The notes below the pieces were generated by a model, which made no database searches, was not told where the DNA came from, and was given only the letters and a program-made list of their open reading frames with translations. From positions 7,812,001-7,876,000 of the forward strand of contig AP026548.1 in NCBI GenBank assembly GCA_026075535.2: a stretch of DNA of 64,000 nt, given 5' to 3'. Below, piece after piece: positions 31,604-45,420 of the stretch. The stretch comes from Tricholoma matsutake (lineage: Eukaryota; Basidiomycota; Agaricomycetes; Agaricales; Tricholomataceae). Positions within the stretch are counted from its first letter, which is position 1. Each line of letters opens with the position of its first letter. The translations under genes were made by a program, and so were the position numbers.

Positions 31604-33804
31604 TATTTTATGATCTATAATCAAATAATGCTAAATACCTGACAATATTTGGTAATAAAAAACCCAATAGTATGCAAAGACATAAAAAATATTAAATCAG
31701 CTCAAGAAGCTGATCAGAATGATATATAAAACATAAAATACAGGATGTAAACTTTATATTTAGCCTAATAAATAATACCAAATAGTGGAAACCATTATGT
31801 TAATGATGCATCAATGATATTCTGTTCTATTACAAGTTAAACATTAAGGAAGATATAGCTGATTTTCATTAATAACAAATAATAACAAATATATAATAAT
31901 ATCTCTTGATTCTGTTCCAGCAATGTGGATTTTTGTTGAACCATTTTCCACCAAGGTCACCTAGTAATGATTGGCATAGCATTAGTATTTTAGATATAGT
32001 TTCCATTCCTATGATACCTCCACTACTCTGGTCTCCACCGGTCTCTGACCTAACTCTGCTCTTTAGTATTTAACTGATTTACTTCTGTTTGTATTCTTTG
32101 GTTCATAAAGCAACCAAGTTTACCCATCTCAATCTCTAGTCTCCTCTCCTGTCTCAGACTTCCTCTTGAACTCTGATATTCTTACATTTACCTTTGTCTT
32201 GAAATTAGACACTGACAAGGTGAAGGGGACAATTTCTTATAAGTTGAAGCCAAGTCCTCTCTGATACACCATCCAATATGAGTCTGACAGATTTCCACCC
32301 TCAAGTTCAGCACTTAACAATAATGGTCTAATAGTATACAACATTGTTTATATAAGAACTGACTGAAATAATAAATTGAAACTATACAAACAAGGCCAAA
32401 TAATTCCAAATGAGATTTCAATAATGGGCCAACAATATATCTTTTTATTTCAAGTTAAATAAAACAAATGGGACAAGAATTGAGTGAGATACAGCATTTT
32501 TGATGATTTAATAACAAATATAAGCAACCTTTGTTTAGCACATATAAATCAGATAATATACAAACAGTATATATTTTATTTGCAGGTTAAATCAGTTGGA
32601 TTAAAGAATAACTAACTGAGATACCACAAACAATGCCAAACAATACCATGATCTCAATGAATGGGCCAATAATGTATCTTCTTATTCCAAGTTAAATAAA
32701 ACAAATTGGCCAAGAATTGACCAAGATACAGCATTTTGATAATTTAACAAATAAAGATAAACAATTTTGTCAACATAGTATAAAATGCCCAAGCTACACA
32801 CCCTTCTACAAGTTAAACTCAATTGAATTAGAACTGGCTCTGATATAGTCTTTTTGATCTGCTTGATATATTAACAAATAATAGCAAACATCTGTAAATA
32901 TCCTTTAAGGATAGACCAACAGTATCTTTTTATTTTCAAGTTAAATCATCCAAAATGGAGAGATACTATATTTAGGCATGACAACAATGTCAAACAATAC
33001 CAAACACTCTTCTGATGATGGGCCAATGATGGGCCAATAGTGTATCTTCTTATTCCAAGTTAAATAAAACAAATCAGCCAAGATATGGGCAAGATACAGT
33101 ATTTTGATGATTTAACAATTGAAGATAAACAACCTTTGTCAGTGTAAAGTGCCCAAGCTACACCCTTCTACAAGTTAAATAAACTCAATTGAGTTAAAAC
33201 CAGCTCTGACATCATCTTTTTGATTTAATTGATATATGAACAAATAATGCCAAATATTTGTAAGTATCTTTTAATAATAGACCAACAGTATACTTTTTAT
33301 CTTGCAAGTTAAATCATCCAAAATGAATGAAAACTGAAGGAGATACTATATTTAGCCATGACAACAGTGCCAAACAATGCCAAACACCCTCCCAATGATT
33401 GGCCAATAATGTATCTTCTCATTCCAAGTTAAATAAAAGAAATCAGCCAAGAATTGAGCAAGATACAGTATTTTGATAATCTCACAAACAAATATAAACA
33501 ACTTTTGTCAGCACAGGGTAAAGTGTCCAAGATACCCTTCCGCAAGTTAAATAAACTCAATTGAGTAAAAACTGGCTCTGATATAGTTATGTTGATCTTT
33601 TTGATTTATAAACAAACAATCCCAAATACTTGTAAATAGTTCCCAATGATAGACCAACAGCATACTTTTCATTTGCAAGTTAAATCGTGCAAATTGGATG
33701 AAAACTGAAGGAGATACTATATTTAGCCATGACAACAATACCAAACAATGCCAAGTACTCTCCCGATGACTGGCCAATGATGTACTTTCCCATATGTAGT
33801 TTAA
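31604..33804. repeat. Higher-order satellite, 120-bp subunits in 369-bp units
   Basis: A CAAGTTAAAT box recurs about every 120 bases. Three diverged subunits follow it: ...CATCCAAAATG, ...AAAACAAATCAGCCAAG and ...AAACTCAATTGAG. Equivalent subunits sit 369-370 bases apart (for example boxes at 32937, 33306 and 33675; 33055 and 33425; 33172 and 33542). The left third is more diverged. The array resumes right of the helicase unit at 44138, which shows that the unit was inserted into the satellite. Confidence 0.85.
31990..32300 (+). repeat. Gypsy leader relic inside the satellite
   Basis: This stretch resembles the leader of the first gypsy (about 560-790): C/T-rich text, then TTGAAATTAGACACTGAC, GGTGAAGGGG and AAGTTGAAGCCAAGTCCT. 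It has no coding frame. It is probably an old captured or inserted retroelement leader. Confidence 0.5.
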
Positions 33805-34087
33805 GGGTCCGTTCGGCCACAATTTTTATCTGAAATTTGGAAATTTGATGGCAAACTCGGTGGCCGGTCCGAGTAAGTTGGCTGTCGCGTGATGTTGATG
33901 AACTTTCGCACACATCAGCCATGAATTTTCTGCGAGCCATATCTCAACAACCAGGCCACATTTTTACATGATCCTGTAGTCGACTTTACACTAGTAACTG
34001 AGCTCTGGAATATCCTACAATTTACTTATTTTTTGGTGGAGTTTTGAAAGAGTTGGTTTGAGTCCAGCCAAAAATGTGTGTGCAAGC
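33805..34087 (+). repeat. Left terminal inverted repeat of helicase element
   Basis: It starts GGGTCCGTTCGGCCAC and ends CAAAAATGTGTGTGCAAGC. It pairs with 43853-44134. Differences between arms are mostly C/T or G/A transitions and one small substitution block (GTTTTGAAAG against GTGTTAAAAG). Confidence 0.85.
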
Positions 34088-34610
34088 TAGTCTAGAGTTT
34101 ATTGTGGGGTCGTAGTAGGGATTGACTCGGAGTTTGGAAACTAATCAAAATTGATCAAAGTCTTCGATGGCTGAAGCGGCCGGAGATTCCAGTTTCCTGA
34201 TACAGCCAAACTTGATCATAAGTGATCGAATATAACTTTGGAATTTTTCGCTTTTATGCAACCTGTTATGTTAATGCACTTGCTTCCAGTCTAACATCCA
34301 GCTGGATTACTGTTCTGCACATGGATAATGAAGCTACCGAAGTATCATCACCTCCAGAAGTTAATTCTCATCAATGGCTAGATGCCCTCCTCCGCAAGAA
34401 ATGTCAAGTCCCATTCCTTCGTGAACATCAGCTTGTCCATGGCATGGACCTCAACAATGGCCGGGATTTATTTTTGGTAATAGCAACCTCACAGGGCAAG
34501 ACTATAGTACTGCATGCTCCTTTAATTGCAGCTCAGGCTCGGGAAGAAGATGGAATTGCATTGTTGATTGTCCCAACCAAGGTATTGGTTGAACAGCAGG
34601 TGAGATAGTC

Positions 34611-35364
34611 TGTTACAATTTTCTGTTATCGTAACCCACAACGACCAGACGTACGCCAGCAAGACCAGGTACTTTAATTTTCTCATTCGACTCGACTCAC
34701 TTCCGATGGGAGACGCTTTGATGCATGGTGACTCCATGCACCCAAACCCACTCCCACACATGCTGTGATACGACAGCCTCCTGACATGAGGTCCATGACG
34801 TCGGACTCTCACGATCGACATCGGATCCTTGACATCGGATCCGTGACATCGGACGCCTCATGCTAGGCATGAGGCTTATCTGTTATTGCTTCCTGACATG
34901 CCACGCCGCAGCACTCCGTGACATTGGACTCCTCATGCTAGGCATGAGGCTTACTGTTCTATTGTTCGTTCTATATTTACTTGACAAGGATCTCGTATTC
35001 CGATTGGACAATAGACATTCTCTGAACCATATATAAGCTACAGTAATATGGCCTGTATTCCTTAGCTTGACCTAATTCAATCAATGGTCTTAGACTCAAC
35101 CTGAACACTCAACAGCTTAGGAAGCCCCTAGCTGTGATAACTCGAACTCGACAGTTGGAAAGCCTCCAACTGTGATATACAAACCGACGGTCTACTCAGA
35201 AAGCCTCTGAGTACAGATAGCTGTGACAACTTGAGGAAGTACCCAAGTGAAGGCAGAAAGCCCGAAACACTAGGAAAGTCTCCTAGTGCGATACGAGACA
35301 GTTGGAAGGCCTCCAACTGTAACATACGAAGCCAAGGCTGAGTTAAAGACCTATAGTCTTAACA
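34611..35364 (+). repeat. 5' LTR of full-length gypsy
   Basis: Starts TGTTACAATTTTCTG and ends AGTCTTAACA, 754 bp. It is 78 bp longer than the 3' LTR because of an extra CCTCATGCTAGGCATGAGG-containing module near 34820-34900. Short paired boxes such as CAGTTGGAAGGCCTCCAACTG recur along it. The sequence after it, AAAGGTCAAGC, is in the primer-binding position; I could not assign the tRNA. Confidence 0.9.
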
Positions 35365-35648
35365 AAAGGTCAAGCTGATCTATGCAGTCCACCTACCTAG
35401 GTGCAGACACAATGTCTTTTAGACAAAGCCCAGACAGACCTCCAACCAGAGCATCATCATCAGGAAGAACCCTGTGGTATAGATACCAGGGTCGACTAGT
35501 ATGATACTCGGAACCAGCACAGAAGTGGTTCTCAAGAAGAACCAGTGACGAAGAACCCCGATACCTCAACGAAGAAGACTTTAGATCTTCCAATAAAGAA
35601 GAAACCCCAGAACGAGATCCATTCTCCCTATCCGACGACAACGCCAAC

Positions 35649-36500
35649 ATGTCTACCGAACCCACCGCATCGACCAAGGAGATTAGAATCCAAACCCCCT
35701 CTGACTTCACAGGGGACCGAACGAGAACTGCAAAGTTCTTACAAGAAGTAAAACTCTATTTGAGAGTGAACCACGGAATCTACGACACCGATGAAAAGAA
35801 AATCATCTTCGCATTGTCATTTATGAACGGAGGAACCGCCGTGCCCTGGGCACAGACATGGGCAGAGAAGGAAGACCTAGGAGCATGGTCAGCCTTCAAA
35901 GCGGTGCTCAAGATAGTGTTCACGCCAATTGACGAAGCTGGCAGAGCCAGAACCGAGATGAAGACACTGAAGCAGGGACAGGACCTGGAGGACTACATTG
36001 CACAGTTCTGAATCCTGCGAGAAAAGGTGGGAATCAACGACGATACCACCCTGATAGAACTCTTCATGGATGGGTTAAACCCCAAGCTCCTCGAGAGGAT
36101 CTTTAACATGGAGATGATCCCAACAGCGCTGGAGGGGATGATCAATGCCGCCTCAAAGTACAACGGACAGTGGAGGAGAGCAAAGGCCATAACAGGGAGA
36201 CTGCAGGAAGCTTTGACAAGGAAGCTGCCGAACTCCAAGGCAAAGGAGACCCCACTCGAGATCAACCAGCTCTCCTACCAGGAGAGGATCGAACATATGA
36301 AAAAAGGATGGTGCTTTGTGTGCCATCAGACTGGGCACAGAGCATCCAAACACAAGAAAGGGGAAAAGAGGACCGAGGACCAGCCACCCCTGAAGAATAA
36401 AAGCAAGGAAGCCTACTTGAAGATCCGAGCGATCATGAAAGAACTCGATGAAGAAGAAAAGAAAGGAGCTCTTGCCACAATTGAGGACGAGGGTTTTTAA
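35649..36500 (+). pseudogene. gag: Gypsy gag with one nonsense codon
   Basis: One frame from MSTEPTAST to 36500, interrupted by a single TGA at 36009-36011 where arginine would fit (QF-stop-ILREK). It includes a typical gag core (TPSDFTGDRTRTAKFL, then LKQGQDLEDYIAQF) and a zinc-knuckle-like CFVCHQTGHRASKH in which the final cysteine is missing. Pol begins 17 bases downstream in another frame, implying frameshifting or reinitiation for pol expression. Confidence 0.9.
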
Positions 36501-36517
36501 AGAGGTGGCCTGCCTCG

Positions 36518-39500
36518 ATGCCAGGTACCACTGAACTCTCTGTCTGCTCTGTACTACTAGCCACTTTGAAGAATCAATCTATGTGTTTAGATGTCAAAGT
36601 TCTAGGAGCAGGCAGAGGGAAAGCCATTGAAACCGAAGCCCTACTCGACTCTGGAGTGGGAGGGATATTCATGAGTCATGAATTCGCGGAGAGCAGCGGA
36701 TTTGAGCTGCACCCCCTGGAGAAGGTGATCAAGGTCAAGAACGTGGATGGAACCCCAAACAAGAAGGGGGAGATTTCCCACTATGCCAGGGAACTCCTGA
36801 TGATCAACAGAAGAACCTTTCCAACGACCTTCCTCATTGCAGGACTGGGAAAGGAATCAGTCATCTTGGGCTTGCCATGGCTCAGGAGAATCAACCCAGT
36901 AATTGACTGGAGAATTGGAACCTTCCAATTCAGGACGAATGACAAGACCCATCCTGAATTCTCACATGGAAGAGGAAGAACCCTTATCGGTAGGGTACAA
37001 ACCAAGAAAACCAATGATGAACACTTGTCATGGCATCGGAAGGGAACCGAGCAGAAGAAGAACCCCTTAGACATGATGAAGGAAGAACGACAGGCATGGT
37101 GCCGAGGCATCATTGCTAGAGACCAAGAGAAGCTCACCCTCAAGAAGAAAGCTGCTGAGGAAGAACAAGCACAGTGGAAAAGGCTGGCAACCAGAGAACT
37201 GGAGAAACTGGCTGCCAAGAAAGAAGAAAGATGACTGGCATTGGCCCGAATAGTTGCGAAACAGAGGGAAAAGATTACCCTGAAGAAAGAGAAACCGACG
37301 AACAAAGAGCGGCAAATAGATTGCCGAAGAATCGTCGCCAAGGCAAGATTAATGGGGGGAGCCCTCCATGCTGAACCAAGAAGAAGCAAGATGCTGGTCG
37401 AGACAAGAAAAGCGACGATCAAAGAAATCGACGATGAAGAGATCGCAATCACGACTCTTCAAGATGCGGAGCCCATAGGGCCACAAGACGAAGAAGACAC
37501 TGGGAAGGAAAACCCAGCACAGGCAAGCCACGAACAGGCAATGGAACAGGCAATGGAACAGACAACAGAACGGACACCCGAACAAGAAATTGCAGACGAT
37601 GAACTACTGATCGCCTACATTCGAGGAGAACCCATCATTGGAATATTCGAACCGGCTAAGATGCCACTGACAGAGGAGTACGATGAGCCAAGATACAGAT
37701 ACTCCCAGAAAACAAGGACAATCTCTCGAATTGTGAAGGCAAAAGGATCACCGCAATATGCATATGGACAGAATATCTGGATTAGGGCAAAGACATCGGT
37801 CTCTCAACACCTGACACACAAGAAGGATGGAGACCCCGAACAGAAGACCCTAGATGAACTACTCCCCAAACAGTACAAGGAGTACCGACGGATATTCGAA
37901 AAGGAAGCATTGGAACGATTCCCAGAATCAAGACCCTGGGATCACGCAATCAAACTGAAACCGGACTTTGCAGCAAAGGATTGCAGGGTTTACCCGTTGT
38001 TGCCAGCAGAACGAAAGAAACTCGACAAGTTCCTTGATGAGAGCCTGCAGAAAGGATACATCCGACCATCGAAATCGCCCATGGTGTCGCCATTCTTCTT
38101 CATTGCAAAGAAGGACTTGGACGTGCTACGACCCTGCCAAGATTACAGGTACTTGAATAACAGAACGATCAAGAACACCTACCCACTGCCGCTGGTAGGA
38201 GACCTGTTGGACAAACTAAGAGGGGCAAAATGGTTTACGAAATTGGACATCCGATGGGGATATCACAATGTCAGAATCAAGGACAGAGATCAATGGAAAG
38301 CAGCCTTCAAAATGAACAGGGGGCTGTTTGAGCCAACGGTGATGTTCTTTGGATTATGCAACTCACCGGCAACCTTCCAGGCAATGATGAACGAGAAATT
38401 CCGCGACATGATCAGAGAAGGATGGCTCGTGATTTACATGGACGACATCCTGATATTCTCCAAGAATCAGAACGAACACCAGGTGCTGCAAAGACTGGCA
38501 GAAAACGACTTATACCTGAAACCAGAGAAATGCAAATTCGACGTCCACAAAGTGGAATTCTTGGGTCTGATCATCTGACCCAACAAAATTGCCATGGACA
38601 ACACGAAACTGGCAGGTATACAGGATTGGCCAACCCTGACAAATGTAAAGGCAGTCAGATCTTTCCTGGGACTTGGAAACTTCTACAGGAAGCTTATCAG
38701 ACATTTTGCGGAGACAAGCAGGCCACTTAATGAACTGACGAAGAAGAACAAAGCGTTCGACTGGACAACGGAATGCAAACAGGCTTTTCAAATGCTGAAA
38801 AGGAAATTCGCAGAAGCCCCAGTACTGCTGATGCCAGACCCGACAAAGCCATTCACGATCGAATCAGATGCCTCAAAACATGTGACAGGAGGAGTGCTGA
38901 GACAAAGGGACACGAATGGGGACTGGCACCCATGTGGATACATATTGCATGCGCTAACACCAACGGAACGGAACTACGAGATTTACGACAGGGAGCTACT
39001 AGCGATAATATGATTGCTAGAAACCTGGAGACACTACCTAATGGGTTCAGAACACCCAGTGGTAATCCTGTCAGATCACAAGAACTTGACGTACTTCTGA
39101 ATGGCACAGAAACTGAACAGACGACAGGCAAGATGGAGCTTATTCCTATCAGAATTTGACTTGCAAATCGTCCATGTGCCTGGATCACAGATGGTACAGA
39201 GTGATGCGTTATCATGGAGAGTGGACCACATACCAGAAGAAGACAATGATAATGAAGACATCACGATGCTGCCAGAAACAGTATTCATGAAATTCATTGA
39301 CACTGAAATGCATGACTTACTCGCAGGGAGTATCATGAAAGACGACCTGGTGAAAAGTGCAATCAAGGCGCTGAAGACCAAAGGAACACTGCCGATAAAT
39401 TCGGCATTGAAAGACTGGAAGATAGAAGACGGCCTTCTATTCTTCCAAGACAGGTGTTACGTCCCTGACAACGGAGAACTGTGGAAGAGGCTGGTGCAAA

Positions 39501-40747
39501 AGTACCATGAAGGAATAACCAACGGACACCTGGGACAATGGCAGACTACCAAAATGATCAGAAGGGACTACTGGTGGCCAGGAATGATGACATACATCAA
39601 GAACTATGTTTCTGGATGCACTACATGCCAGCAGATGAAGGTCAACACCCACCCAATGACACCCCCACTGCAACCGATCAAATCCGAAGCAACGAGACCA
39701 TTTGCAATGGTGATGACAGATTTTATAACCGACTTACCAGAGTCCGACGGTTATGATGCACTCATGGTCATGGTAGACCATGGGCTTATGAAGGGGGTAA
39801 TTTTTATCCCTTGCAGGAAAACTGTGGATGCATTGGGAGCGGCCACCCTCTATCTAGACAATGTCTACAAACAATTCAGCCTCCCAGACAAGATCATCTC
39901 TGACAGAGATCCCAGATTTGCCTCGCAGCTGTTCCAGGAGCTAGGAAGACTGCTCGGAATCAAGCTGGCAATGAGCACAGCATACCACCCCCAGACCGAT
40001 GGGGAGACAGAACAGGTGAACCAGGAAGTGGAAGTATACTTATGGATCTTCTGCTTGAACAACCAGGAGAATTGGAAGCACCTCCTCCTGACTGTGGAGT
40101 TCACACACAACCAGAGAATGCACTCCATACAGAAGAACTCCCCGTTCTACCTCATGATGGGCTATGAGCCCAAGGCGATCCCACTCCCCTACCTGAAGAC
40201 GAACATACCGGCCATAGAAAAACGAATAGTTGCACTGCAATGGGCCCGAGATGAAGCGAAGGCAACTCACAAGTTGGCCAGACAAATGATGGTGGAAAGA
40301 ATGACAAGGCACTTCACCCCATTCAAAGAAGGAGACAGAGTGTGGCTAGAAGCAAAGAACCTCAGAACAATGCACCAAACAAAGAAGCTTGCACCGAAAA
40401 GAGAAGGACCATTCTCTATTGAGAAGGTCCTGAGCCCACTCTCCTACCGACTGAAGCTGCCAGAACAGTGGAAGATACACCCAGTGTTCCACGCAGCGCT
40501 CCTCTCCCCATATAAAGAAACCAAGACACATGGACCAAACTTCCCAGAACCACCGCCCAATCTGATAGAAGGCGAATCAGAATATGAAGTGGAAGCAATC
40601 ATCGGACATAAGAAGAAAGGAAGGACCATGCACTTCTTAGTGAAGTAGGTCGGATACCCGACCTCGGAGAACTCATGGGAGCCCGAGGGAAACCTGAAAC
40701 ATGCCGAAAGAATTCTAGGAGCATATAAACGACAGCGATGGCTGTAG
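36518..40747 (+). pseudogene. pol: Gypsy pol: PR, KE-rich spacer, RT, RH, IN, chromodomain
   Basis: A single frame with stops at 37232 (TGA), 38576 (TGA), 39011 (TGA), 39098 (TGA) and 40646 (TAG). Domains: protease (ALLDSGVGGIFMS, about 36640-36680), a long Lys/Glu-rich spacer (37000-37600), RT with LVIYMDDILIFS (about 38430-38462), RNase H ([12 protein letters not shown], about 38860), integrase zinc region (HLGQWQTTKMIRRDYWWPGM, C..C near 39615), core MTDFITDLP, SDRDPRFASQLF, GETEQVNQ, then a chromodomain (YEVEAIIGHKKK, FLVK-stop-VGYPTSENSWEP). Each TGA sits where arginine is expected; the TAG replaces tryptophan. No frameshift was seen. Confidence 0.93.
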
Positions 40748-40757
40748 AGGTGGAACC

Positions 40758-41114
40758 ATGCCCACAGGGATTGAGATCCTCGCCATCGTCGCTGGCATGA
40801 TCCTGGCTGTAGCCACAGCCCTGACCTTTGTATTCTGCCTCTATGCCATCTTTTGACCAAGACCTGAACCCCCGATTACAGACATCGAATTCTCCATTCT
40901 ACAGAACCCTATAGAGAACCCATCTCTCTACGAGATCACCACCCCGCTGACACTACTGCCTGAGGCAGCACGAACCAAAAGAACCCGATTGTGGTCCAAG
41001 TTTGGACACAAGTTATTCCTCCATCGCACCCCTCGACCCCAATCCATTCATCTATCCAGACCACATCCAACCAGACCCCGGAGAAGGAACGAAGATATTA
41101 TTCGAAGTCAGTGA
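40758..41114 (+). pseudogene. Third small ORF after pol, predicted single-pass membrane protein
   Basis: It starts ATG at 40758, ten bases after the pol stop, and ends TGA at 41112-41114 just before the polypurine tract. It is 118 codons with one internal TGA at 40854-40856, again a likely CGA. The N-terminal 32 codons form one long hydrophobic stretch (IVAGMILAVATALTFVF), a good transmembrane or signal-anchor segment. The rest is Pro-rich and then strongly basic (HPTRPRRRNEDI). It lies where env sits in errantiviruses, but I see no resemblance to any envelope protein. Function unknown. Confidence 0.55.
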
Positions 41115-41137
41115 CTTCGAAGATAGAGAGAGGGTGA
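41115..41137 (+). other. Polypurine tract region with TTCGAAG palindrome
   Basis: AGATAGAGAGAGGGTGA lies directly before the 3' LTR and is the expected plus-strand primer. Just upstream, CTTCGAA flanks AGTCAGTGA in inverted form (about 41100-41122), a potential small hairpin overlapping the end of the third frame. Confidence 0.7.
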
Positions 41138-41813
41138 TGTTATGATTTTCTGTTATTGTAACCCACGACGACCAGACGTACACTGGCAAGACCAGGTACT
41201 TTAATTTTCTCATTCGACTCGACTCACTTCCGACGGGAGACGCTTTGATGCATGGTGACTCCATGCACCCAAACCCACTCCCACACATGCTGTGATACGA
41301 CAGCCTCCTGACATGAGGTCCGTGATGTCGGACTCTCATGATTGACATGCTGCGCTGCAGCACTCTGTGACATCGGACTCCTCATGCTAGGCATGAGGCT
41401 TACTGTTCTATTGTTCATTCTATATTTACTTGACAAGGATCTCGTATTCCGATTGGACAATAGACATTCTCTGAACCATATATAAGCTACAGTAATATGG
41501 CCTGTATTCCTTAGCTTGACCTAATTCAATCAATGGTCTTAGACTCAACCTGAACACTCAACAGCTTAGGAAGCCCCTAGCTGTGATAACTCGAACTTGA
41601 CAGTTGGAAAGCCTCCAACTGTGATATACAAACCGACGGTCTACTCAGAAAGCCTCTGAGTATGGATAGCCGTGACAACTTGAGGAAGTACCCAAGTGAA
41701 GGCAGGAAGCCCGAAACACTAGGAAAGTCTCCTAGTGCGATACGAGACAGTTGGAAGGCCTCCAACTGTAACATACGAAGCCAAGGCTGAGTTAAAGACC
41801 TATAGTCTTAACA
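41138..41813 (+). repeat. 3' LTR of full-length gypsy
   Basis: Starts TGTTATGATTTTCTG and ends AGTCTTAACA, 676 bp. Apart from the 78-bp module difference it is nearly identical to the 5' LTR; the changes I see are mainly C/T and G/A. It is followed by the TAGTC duplication. Confidence 0.92.
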
Positions 41814-43852
41814 TAGTCATAATCTTGTAATCTTTCTCAGATGGTGACCTCGGACCTCCTTTAAGGCTGCAGTAGCATCCAAGCATGGATTACGAGCATT
41901 AGCCATCCATGAAGACAGTGTGCATGAAGCAGGTTTGGAAGGGCGAGACCTCTTTGCCAAATTAGCTGGTGGAACAGGCATCCAGGTTGGGGTCATGAGT
42001 CCTCAGATGCTACAATGCCTACGATTATCAAAGTATATCAAGAATATCAAGTACAAACACCTTGTACAGTGGTTGCTCATTGATGAAGGTCACTTAGTTG
42101 ATGAGGAAAGCGGGACATTCTTGACGGTGTATAGATCCATTACCAACATGCGAGCTAGGCTCCTTTCAACAACTGTGTGGGCAGCAGTGACGGGATCTGC
42201 TACTCCTGAACATGCACAAGCTATTGCAAAATATCTAGGGTTCAAGCCTGGGCACTATGTCAATGCATGATACACCATAGACCGTCCAACTATCAAATAC
42301 ATACCACGATTTTTCAAATATCCTATATCTGGGAATACATTCCTCGACCTCAGCTTCCTTGTCCCATTTGGAATGAAATTGGTACAAGAAATTCCATCAA
42401 CTCTCCTCTTTGCGACTACAATTAATTCCAGATATCGCATAATGCAATTTCTTGATCGTTTGATCCCACCTACAATCCCAGACCGACACAATGTCATCAG
42501 GCTGTATAATTCCCTCATGCCAATAGACTATCGGAAACAGTTCCTCAGTGATATCCAGGATGGGTCAGTATTGCGCATCAGGATTGCAACAGACACATGC
42601 ACGTATGGACTGGACATTCCAAATCTCCAGCATGTTGTCCTGTTTGATATGTGTCCATCCTTTGAAAATCTCAAACAAAAGATTGGGTGACCAGGACGTG
42701 ATGGTCTTCCTGCCAAGGCAATAACATACGCACCTTCGTGGGTTCATGATGTACCCTTAGCAGATGGAGAGAGCCTACGAAAACAAGCCACTGAGGACAG
42801 GAAGAGACACGAGAAGTTGCCAGCTGTCATGCAACAGTGGTACAATCCGACACCTTCTTCATGCTCACAGGCTGCAGATCTGAAGTACAATGGAGAGGCT
42901 TTTGTTCAATGCCCCAACTGTTGTGTTACCTGTGATCCCGATCCACAACAGAGCAGAGATCTGGCAATGGTCCAGACTTGGGTCAATTATTTTGAGGAGC
43001 TCAACAAGAAGGAACAATTGCACATCAAACCGTTACATTCTGATGGTACCTACCACCCCTTGGAGAAGAATATGAAAGAGTCACTTCTTCAGATGTTGCA
43101 GCATTGGCGAGGGCAGAAGTGGGCTGTGATCAGAGGTTCACAGCGAGGCATACCCAGTACCATGTTCCTTCCACACAATATCTTGCTCCATATTGTGGAG
43201 CATGCACATGTCTGTTCAGACCTTGACCGACTGTGTGTTATATGCGAAGGATGGAACAGGTTTGCAGATTATGGCATTGAACTCCTGCAATACCTAGGAA
43301 AGATCATGATGGGATTCAATGAACTTTTCAATGAAAGAGAGGCAGGGAATAGCAGAAGTGATGATGTTGAAATGGCCACACTTGAGCCAGAGGAAACTCC
43401 CACTGCTGTGATAACTAGCACTGAACCAGTATTCACTGCCAGCCAGAGCCGTGTTCACCTGGTTCTTGGATCCAACCTGGTGGTCCCATCACCAACTAGG
43501 TGTACCACCTTGAAACGACGTGCATCTCCACTTCACTCCATGTCCACAAAGAGAACAATATTTGATTATATGCAAGCCAGAATCTTCTAGAGATCTATTT
43601 TGGAGGTATAAAATTATACACAGTCAACTATTTGCAGACAATGACACTCTGAGACCATTTATCTACACTTCCTTCACCAGAATAGAAGCTAGAAAGCCAT
43701 TGTGGAAGCCATAAAATGACCACAACATCAAATTTGCTCATGTTTATCAAATTTCAGCAACTGTCAAGCTTTATGCAAAGCACTGTAATACACTACCTTT
43801 AACAATCTCCACCACTCAGATTATTTTCATGACCATTTATTCTCAGGATATT

Positions 43853-44134
43853 GCTTGCACACACATTTTTGGCTGGACTCAAACCAACTCTTTTAACACT
43901 CCACCAAAAAATAAGTAAATTGTAGGATATTCCAGAGCTCAGTTACTAGTGTAAAGTCGACTACAGGATCATGTAAAAATGTGGCCTGGTTGTTGAGATA
44001 TGGCTCACAGAAAATTCATGACTGATGTGTGCGAAAGTTCATCAACATCACGTGACAGCCAACTTACTCGGACCGGCCACTGAGTTTGCCATCAAATTTC
44101 CAAATTTCAGATAAAAATTGTGGCCAAATAGAAC
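43853..44134 (-). repeat. Right terminal inverted repeat of helicase element
   Basis: The reverse complement of the left arm, starting GCTTGCACACACATTTTTGG on the plus strand and ending near GGCCAAATAGAAC. The outermost bases have decayed relative to the left arm. Confidence 0.85.
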
Positions 44135-44137
44135 TAA

Positions 44138-44594: not shown

Positions 44595-44628
44595 AACGAG
44601 TCTTACTTAACATTGTTAAGGACTCGTA

Positions 44629-45142
44629 ACTGTGGCAGATAATGAATCGTACTCACACGGCATTGCAGCAAGTAGGATCATCGCCTGTACTAGTTCGGGG
44701 ATGGTGATGTTGGCAAGCATGAGGTGCTCGAACTTGTCAGCCATCTTAGCGATTTCTGGTGCAGGATTCACAGCTGGGATTTTAATTGCTATTGCAGACC
44801 TAAAGTCAGAAAAGACTTGGGAGGGGCCATCGACACCATAGTCAGTGCAAATAAGGTCCAACACCTCCTCAGCAGTGTCCTTTGTGTTGGCACGCTGCCA
44901 AATGCAGGGGGCCAGGTGGAGCACTAGGCTACCAATAGCCTGGTCATTTTTGTTGCTCCAGGTCTGGAGCTTGGCAGTAGCATTTGTCGCTGTCAAGGGA
45001 GGCGCCAGAGGCAGTTTGAGTTCTGCCCCACTAGTTATTTGCCAGAGGCCCTGAGACCTGAGCCACGCCTTCATTGAGTCAGCCCATTGAATGTAATTTG
45101 ATCCGTCGAAAGTTTGAATGAGTTTCTCAAGAGTTGAAGACA
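44629..45142 (-). pseudogene. gag: Ty1/copia gag (5' segment)
   Basis: Minus-strand frame starting MSSTLEKLIQTFDGSNYIQW at 45142: the typical copia gag opening. It continues MKAWLRSQGLWQITSG, a DQAIGSLVLHL segment, and ends LLAAMPCEYDSLSATVT where the 13-kb insertion begins. Its continuation is at 31591 downward. No LTR is visible upstream; instead a hAT-like end lies at 45208. Confidence 0.85.
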
Positions 45143-45207
45143 TGATTGTTGTGAAGCAGCTGTAAAAGCGCTCAATCAGCTTCTCACTCATCAAAACACA
45201 TTTAACG

Positions 45208-45420
45208 ATGTCTAGTGTATGAAAGTCCGGTTCATCGAACCACAAAAAAACCGAAACCAGACCGAACCGAACTGCAGTTCAGTCTTTTTCCAGTTGTGGT
45301 TGCCCTTATTTCCTCAGTCCAATGGTTGCAGTTACAATGAATTGAATACTTATTTAAAACCGATTGAAACCAGTTCTAACCGGTTGCAACCGACTATACT
45401 GTACATAATATAATTTAAAT
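45208..45420. mobile_element. hAT-like end fragment
   Basis: TAGTGTATGAAAGTCCGGTTC at 45208 closely matches the left end of the hAT-like element at 46323. The following 200 bases carry ACCGGTT/AACCGGT-type words as in that element (ACCGATTGAAACCAG, AACCGGTTGCAACCG). I could not find a matching right end, so it is probably a truncated relative. Confidence 0.5.

What the first reader, a model, noticed from the sequence alone, without database searches (positions are those of the whole stretch)
33805..44134. A mobile-looking unit that carries only a RecQ-like helicase between 283-bp terminal inverted repeats
The arms at 33805-34087 and 43853-44134 are near-identical inverted copies, TAA flanks both sides, and the surrounding satellite continues across the site, so the unit moved in as a block. 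Without the nested gypsy it is about 3.12 kb and its only gene is an SF2 helicase with recognisable motifs I-VI. RecQ-like genes are numerous in mushroom genomes; a TIR transposon cargo or helicase-driven element would explain that. No transposase is seen, so it may be moved in trans by a Harbinger or use a different mechanism.
Basis: partly seen in the sequence, partly recalled or inferred. Interest (0 to 1): 0.88.

Follow-up and report, generated by a model that had tools for sequence, protein, structure and literature searches.

The report
Helicase transposon wreck inside a MITE
The helicase gene between the two long inverted arms in this mushroom genome is most likely not cargo of those arms but the broken remainder of a second jumping gene that landed inside them, of a kind that carries a helicase beside a probable transposase, which may help explain why mushrooms hold many RecQ-like helicase genes.

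Summary
The reading "helicase = cargo of the arms" is not supported. The arms belong to a PIF/Harbinger-type MITE family (27 loci found, helicase at 1). The left arm ends at 34087 because another transposon, X, begins at 34088. A C10 relic (both X ends, 9-bp duplication) and a C4 relic (DUF6589 gene beside the helicase's 3' end) show that X carried a convergent gene pair: a DUF6589 protein and the helicase. In this genome 13 of 26 helicase-like loci lie within 10 kb of DUF6589, 13 of 13 convergent (random mean 0.33). A second family has two-gene copies with TIRs and 9- to 10-bp duplications. In other mushrooms 6 of 12 tagged helicases neighbour a DUF6589 gene. The DUF6589 model resembles Hermes transposase. 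X is probably an AcademH helicase transposon; no reference transposase could be compared. The window's X is dead: two stops, tail, partner gene and far end lost, gypsy in its intron.

The parts
33802..33804 (.). TAA target-site duplication, left copy, of MITE M1
   Evidence: empty-site join matches satellite
33805..34087 (+). left arm of PIF/Harbinger-type MITE M1, cut short by X
   Evidence: starts GGGTCCGTTCGGCC
34079..34087 (.). 9-bp site TGTGCAAGC after which X inserted (second copy not present, presumably lost in the deletion)
   Evidence: the C5 and C4 relatives read on from this site with AATATCC; the C9 relative differs in it by one base
34088..43553 (+). truncated remainder of transposon X (terminus TAGTCTAGAG at 34088, upstream region, helicase gene), interrupted by the gypsy
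   Evidence: 98% over 405 bp to the C10 copy that keeps both X ends
34321..34599 (+). RecQ-like helicase exon 1 (93 aa, DEAD domain start)
34600..41865 (+). helicase intron, GT...AG, phase 0, about 60 bp without the gypsy
   Evidence: placed by alignment of homologues, no transcript seen
34611..41813 (+). gypsy LTR retrotransposon, TSD TAGTC (34606-34610 / 41814-41818), several in-frame stops
   Evidence: LTRs 97.7% over 471 bp and 90.5% over 274 bp
41866..43553 (+). helicase exon 2, two in-frame TGA (42268-42270, 42688-42690), natural 3' end missing
   Evidence: 3' end kept in the C4 copy (read by eye)
43554..43785 (+). right part of R2, a repeat of about 435 bp with inverted ends (Tc1/mariner-like MITE, TA site by eye); its left part is missing
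   Evidence: 76 matches, both inverted ends counted; complete copy L067:91-525
43786..43852 (-). centre and 60-bp subterminal part of M1
43853..44134 (-). right arm of M1
44135..44137 (.). TAA target-site duplication, right copy, of M1

Best explanation
The unit is a stack of four transposons, not one element with a helicase cargo. (1) A PIF/Harbinger-type MITE, M1, inserted into a satellite at TAA; it was moved in trans by a DDE transposase encoded elsewhere (inferred). (2) X, a two-gene DNA transposon probably of the helicase-encoding AcademH type, inserted into M1's left arm after TGTGCAAGC; R2, a small TA-site MITE, inserted into M1's centre. X's gene pair is a DUF6589 protein, most likely its DDE/RNase H-fold transposase, and, convergent to it, a RecQ-like SF2 helicase. 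(3) One deletion from the helicase's last codons into R2 removed X's DUF6589 gene, its far end, M1's left subterminal part and half of R2. (4) A gypsy inserted into the helicase intron. How X works, inferred: the DUF6589 transposase binds the ends and cuts the target with a stagger of 9 or 10 bp, seen as 9- to 10-bp duplications; the helicase unwinds ends or assists repair of the gap. Shown: junctions, duplications, gene pairing, fold resemblance. Inferred: catalysis, the helicase's role, the single deletion and the order of events. The window copy is inactive.
Confidence: 0.9

Rival explanations
1. One reading: a Harbinger-type non-autonomous transposon (Pack-TYPE-like) captured a helicase gene between its arms and moved it as cargo.
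For: Arms, TAA duplications and complete enclosure; Harbinger-type transposase domains are present in the genome, at least 151 matches.
Against: A transposon terminus lies exactly at the left junction; the internal right side is part of an unrelated repeat; no second arm-flanked helicase among 26 helicase-like loci; half of those loci pair with DUF6589.
Confidence: 0.05
2. The helicase is a host RecQ or a telomere-linked helicase gene caught among repeats, and its proximity to DUF6589 elsewhere is a side effect of both lying in repeat-rich DNA.
For: RecQ helicases near fungal telomeres are described (PMC10817607, passage); 13 of 26 loci lack DUF6589 within 10 kb.
Against: 13 of 13 close pairs are convergent, 12 of 13 with a gap under 2.9 kb; adjacency in other genera; inverted repeats and duplications enclose both genes in two copies; the window lies about 2.3 Mb from the nearest end of its 10.2-Mb contig.
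Confidence: 0.03
3. X and its relatives are not Academ but a separate, undescribed superfamily of two-gene helicase transposons built on DUF6589.
For: Pfam names DUF6589 'unknown function'; no held paper contains the word DUF6589; no reference Academ transposase could be compared.
Against: Duplication length and the presence of a helicase agree with what is stated for AcademH, which is reported from Basidiomycota.
Confidence: 0.2

Closest known systems
AcademH DNA transposons (Kojima 2020; not held, known here only through citing papers)
   Same: Encode a helicase; 9- or 10-bp target duplications; found in Basidiomycota
   Different: Transposase homology not tested; here two separate convergent genes; the window copy keeps only the helicase end
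PIF/Harbinger MITEs (Tourist-like)
   Same: 3-bp TAA/TTA duplications, termini GGGTCCGTT, several copies, presumably moved in trans
   Different: Very long arms (283 + 60 bp on each side of the 822-bp C9 copy)
hAT transposases (Hermes)
   Same: The DUF6589 model aligns with Hermes over residues 143-693
   Different: Duplications of 9-10 bp rather than the 8 bp of hAT (recalled); no significant Foldseek hit; accompanied by a helicase
Pack-TYPE transposons
   Same: A gene lies between the inverted ends of a non-autonomous element
   Different: The gene has its own transposon end at the junction; no multiplied capture found
Helitrons
   Same: Helicase gene in a fungal transposon
   Different: Helicase RecQ-like, with target duplications and inverted ends (Helitron features recalled)

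Membership tests
PIF/Harbinger MITE (M1, the arms) | 3-bp TWA target duplication | tested here: met
   TAA, TAA, TAA, TTA at 4 of 4 young copies, the C9 copy read with one lost terminal G; the older copies were not examined for it
PIF/Harbinger MITE (M1, the arms) | terminal inverted repeats starting GGG(T/C)C(C/T)GTT (recalled consensus) | tested here: met
   GGGTCCGTTCGGCC and variants at the ends of 4 copies; the window's right end has drifted
PIF/Harbinger MITE (M1, the arms) | mobilised by a Harbinger (DDE_Tnp_4) transposase | tested here: inconclusive
   at least 151 DDE_Tnp_4 matches in the genome; no element joining that gene to these termini was sought
AcademH (X) | 9- or 10-bp target duplication | tested here: met
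   9 of 9 (X, C10), 10 of 10 (family Y, C11; 11 also possible), 8 of 9 (family Y, C4; other lengths possible); criterion from PMC10045372; X in the window has one side only
AcademH (X) | encodes a helicase (SF2, recalled) | tested here: met
   DEAD and Helicase_C domains; the profile of relatives matches RecQ 4tmu at E 1.4e-31
AcademH (X) | encodes an Academ-type transposase | not testable with these tools
   no reference sequence held; the partner is DUF6589, Hermes-like model
hAT | 8-bp target duplication (recalled) | tested here: not met
   9 and 10 bp at two copies; the imperfect C4 pair also allows a perfect 8
Helitron | Rep/HUH plus Pif1-type helicase, no target duplication (recalled) | tested here: not met
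   helicase is RecQ-like; duplications present
Telomere-linked RecQ helicase genes | position close to the telomere repeat | tested here: not met
   window at 7.81-7.88 Mb of a 10.2-Mb contig
Pack-TYPE element | host gene captured between the ends of a non-autonomous transposon and moved with it | tested here: not met
   the helicase side of the junction is a transposon terminus; one arm-flanked copy only

The most novel reading that the evidence does not exclude
DUF6589 plus RecQ-like helicase elements form a two-gene transposon superfamily of their own across mushrooms, distinct from Academ, whose transposase is a Hermes-like protein still listed as of unknown function, and which accounts for most of the RecQ-like helicases annotated as host genes in Agaricomycetes.
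Probability: 0.2. Interest if true: 0.65.

Novelty: new member of a known kind. Interest (0 to 1): 0.42.

Why it matters
It indicates that the 'helicase cargo' is the wreck of a helicase-encoding transposon and ties a widespread Pfam family of unknown function (DUF6589) to a transposase-like fold and to that helicase. A share of the 'DNA 3'-5' helicase' and DUF6589 genes in mushroom annotations would then be transposon genes: repeat libraries should mask them and counts of RecQ expansion be corrected. It gives a testable answer to why RecQ-like genes are numerous in these genomes.

Tried and rejected
Helicase as cargo of the arms: rejected. I first read R2's start at 43554 as an insertion boundary, but the complete R2 copy continues past it, so it is a breakpoint. 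An early notebook entry that exon 2 had a third stop was wrong; homologues place the splice acceptor at 41865, phase 0. DUF6589 near the two closest helicase relics: none found by tblastn with four DUF6589 proteins in the 9.9 kb fetched around each of C1 (L046) and C10:9507082 (L047). Duplication in the decayed X relative L066: none recognised by eye. Left-end copies L068-L071: no match to X's right end in the 1.1 kb fetched of each, apart from the 52-bp subterminal repeat in L071. A first tally of locus tags (6 of 8) left out four JGI-type tags; the full tally is 6 of 12. PDB rows other than Hermes were taken as unrelated. Relatives of DUF6589 outside fungi were looked for with the alignment: 113 proteins listed, those with an organism name all fungi; only 7996 candidates were scored, so absence shows nothing. 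Kojima 2020 is not held. Literature: the searches gave no paper with the word DUF6589, and in the listings and passages I saw no description of this gene pair; I read no paper whole.
Full report
WHAT WAS CHECKED. The window is G000:C11:7812001-7876000 of a 161,040,721-base genome in 13 contigs, which fits the telomere-to-telomere Tricholoma matsutake assembly (13 sequences, 161.0 Mb; PMC10211490, passages); the species name is my inference. The gypsy occupies 34611-41813 between TAGTC duplications.

THE ARMS ARE A MITE FAMILY. The arm has 42 matches (40 of 125 candidates scored, so a lower bound) at 27 loci: 14 with two or three matches in inverted arrangement, 13 with one. Of the 14, 12 span 0.35 to 0.82 kb; the others are the window and C4:7347459-7350335 (2.9 kb). 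Four loci belong to the young subfamily (window, C9, C5, C4); their flanks read TAA, TAA, TAA and TTA, the C9 copy being read with one lost terminal G, and their termini GGGTCCGTTCGGCC and variants. TWA duplications with such termini are the mark of PIF/Harbinger elements (recalled); the genome holds at least 151 DDE_Tnp_4 matches. Of 26 helicase-like loci only the window's lies near an arm match; of the other 25, 23 are 0.99 Mb or more away and 2 are on a contig without one. In the C9 and C4 copies the arm continues on both sides through a further 60 bp. In the window the right side has those 60 bp (43793-43852) but the left side stops at 34087.

WHY THE LEFT ARM STOPS. The sequence from 34088 on belongs to something else. 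The stretch 34088-34330 has a 98% copy on C10. The C10 locus (L065) is a 941-bp element: its left half matches a C4 locus (L048) at 96.7% over 541 columns and its right half matches the window's helicase 5' region, inverted, at 98% over 405. It starts TAGTCTCGATACC and ends CTCTAGACTA, between 9-bp duplications GGTAGCGAT, 9 of 9. Its right terminus, read inward, is TAGTCTAGAG, and in the window that word begins at 34088. The C5 and C4 relatives of M1 read TGTGCAAGC followed by AATATCC at this point; the C9 relative differs by one base. So X inserted into M1.

WHAT X CARRIES. The C4 relic keeps X's left end (L048:991) and, in several open frames within about L048:1251-4892, a gene that matches Pfam DUF6589 (E 1.3e-65 and 5.7e-32). 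It runs head-on into the natural 3' end of the helicase, about 150 bp (read by eye), of which 110 bp are 99% identical to the window. The helicase tail that the window lacks is present there, so X's two genes are convergent. In the window the helicase stops at 43553 against the middle of R2, a repeat of about 435 bp with inverted ends (76 matches, both ends counted; complete copy in L067) whose right end abuts M1's centre at 43786. One deletion from the helicase tail into R2 would explain the loss of X's DUF6589 gene and far end, M1's left inner part and R2's left half; this is inferred.

STATE OF THE HELICASE. Exon 1 34321-34599, intron 34600-41865, exon 2 41866-43553, placed by homologues. 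Exon 2 has two TGA stops; P0002 and P0003 have arginine at both places, and P0001 has arginine at the first and cysteine at the second. Relatives: 67 proteins at E <= 0.001, with 7997 candidates scored; 77% to P0001, an ENA sequence without organism name, 60% to Tricholomella constricta. The profile of 21 relatives matches RecQ-family structures best (1oyw E 3.1e-32, named ATP-dependent DNA helicase; 4tmu, named RecQ, E 1.4e-31). The copy is dead.

THE GENE PAIR IS GENERAL. Own genome: DUF6589 has at least 117 matches (102 of 249 candidates scored). Two helicase queries give 26 loci after merging; 13 of 26 lie within 10 kb of a DUF6589 match and 13 of 13 of these are convergent (12 with a gap under 2.9 kb), against a random-placement mean of 0.33 and a maximum of 4 in 2000 trials. 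Several of the 13 look like copies of one family, so they are not independent events. Among the other 13, the window included, orientations relative to the nearest, distant match are mixed; some are probably host RecQ genes. Other mushrooms: 12 of the 67 helicase rows show a locus tag, and 6 of 12 have the neighbouring tag on a DUF6589 protein (Hebeloma M413DRAFT_24878/24877, Marasmius PM082_023230/023229 and PQX77_011584/011585, Paramarasmius VNI00_016039/016038 and VNI00_007097/007098, Tephrocybe DXG01_006554/006553). The 6 without are Tricholomella D9615_009902, Ephemerocybe D9611_012842 and four JGI-type tags, whose numbers need not run in order. Exact contig lengths are shared for 24 of 67 helicases (4 accidental equalities in 40 shifted controls), among them short contigs of 4.2, 6.7, 10.8 and 11.2 kb; on contigs of hundreds of kilobases a shared contig alone shows no close linkage.

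ENDS OF TWO-GENE COPIES. Only the ends could be fetched for a second family (Y). C4 about 11039214-11045342 and C11 about 3413288-3419656 enclose a helicase match and a DUF6589 match between inverted repeats (92.8% over 276 bp, and 82% over 244 bp), with duplications AGATATAGC/GGATATAGC (8 of 9; a perfect 8, or 10 of 11, is also possible) and ACCATCTGCA (10 of 10; 11 is also possible). With X's 9 of 9, three two-ended copies fit 9-10 bp. Whether the genes inside Y are intact was not examined; the matches contain stops.

COMPARISON. PMC10045372 (passage) states that AcademH generates 9- or 10-bp duplications and encodes a helicase; PMC10799480 (passages) states that AcademH occurs at low copy number in Basidiomycota and that helicases from AcademH, KolobokH and Helitrons are the commonest TE-derived domains in fungal fusions; PMC8290104 (passages) reports putative non-autonomous Academ elements in a mushroom. 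The original AcademH paper is not held, so transposase homology stays untested and membership is probable, not proven. The Pfam label 'unknown function' and the absence of the word DUF6589 in held papers suggest that the link from DUF6589 to these elements is not in general use; it may exist in Repbase or in papers not held.

VERDICT. A well-seen structure with the wrong owner: a nested stack in which the helicase is the remainder of an AcademH-like transposon. The cargo claim falls; the idea that helicase-encoding transposons lie behind part of the mushroom RecQ numbers gains support.

Noticed in passing
L066 (G000:C8:4105300-4111000): A decayed X relative: matches to both X end regions (39 bp at 97%, 99 bp at 80%) and to the N-terminal part of the DUF6589 gene, with ORFs at L066:1374-2965 that read like a pogo/Tc1-type DDE transposase (by eye, not scanned) between them.
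   Followed up: partly
L069 (C10:5203610-5204700) and L070 (C8:3099620-3100700): About 60-bp solo copies of X's left end flanked by short imperfect direct repeats (GTCTCCTA; ACTTCTG, by eye), as if very small elements or one-ended insertions.
   Followed up: no
43554-43785; L067:91-525: R2, an abundant repeat of about 435 bp with long inverted ends and a TA target site by eye (76 matches, both ends counted, many 93-99% identical), probably a young mariner-like MITE family.
   Followed up: partly
L046 (C1:4579000-4588900) and L047 (C10:9502500-9512400): Two degenerate relatives of the same helicase (41-75% identity in pieces) with no arm match and no DUF6589 match in the 9.9 kb fetched around each.
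   Followed up: partly
34611-35364 versus 41138-41813: The gypsy's 5' LTR carries an extra stretch of about 75 bp (partial tandem duplication, family D7) absent from the 3' LTR; the two LTR parts differ in divergence (2.3% and 9.5%).
   Followed up: no
44616-45278 (-): A 220-aa open frame next to the unit that reads like a copia-type gag protein (by eye, not scanned).
   Followed up: no
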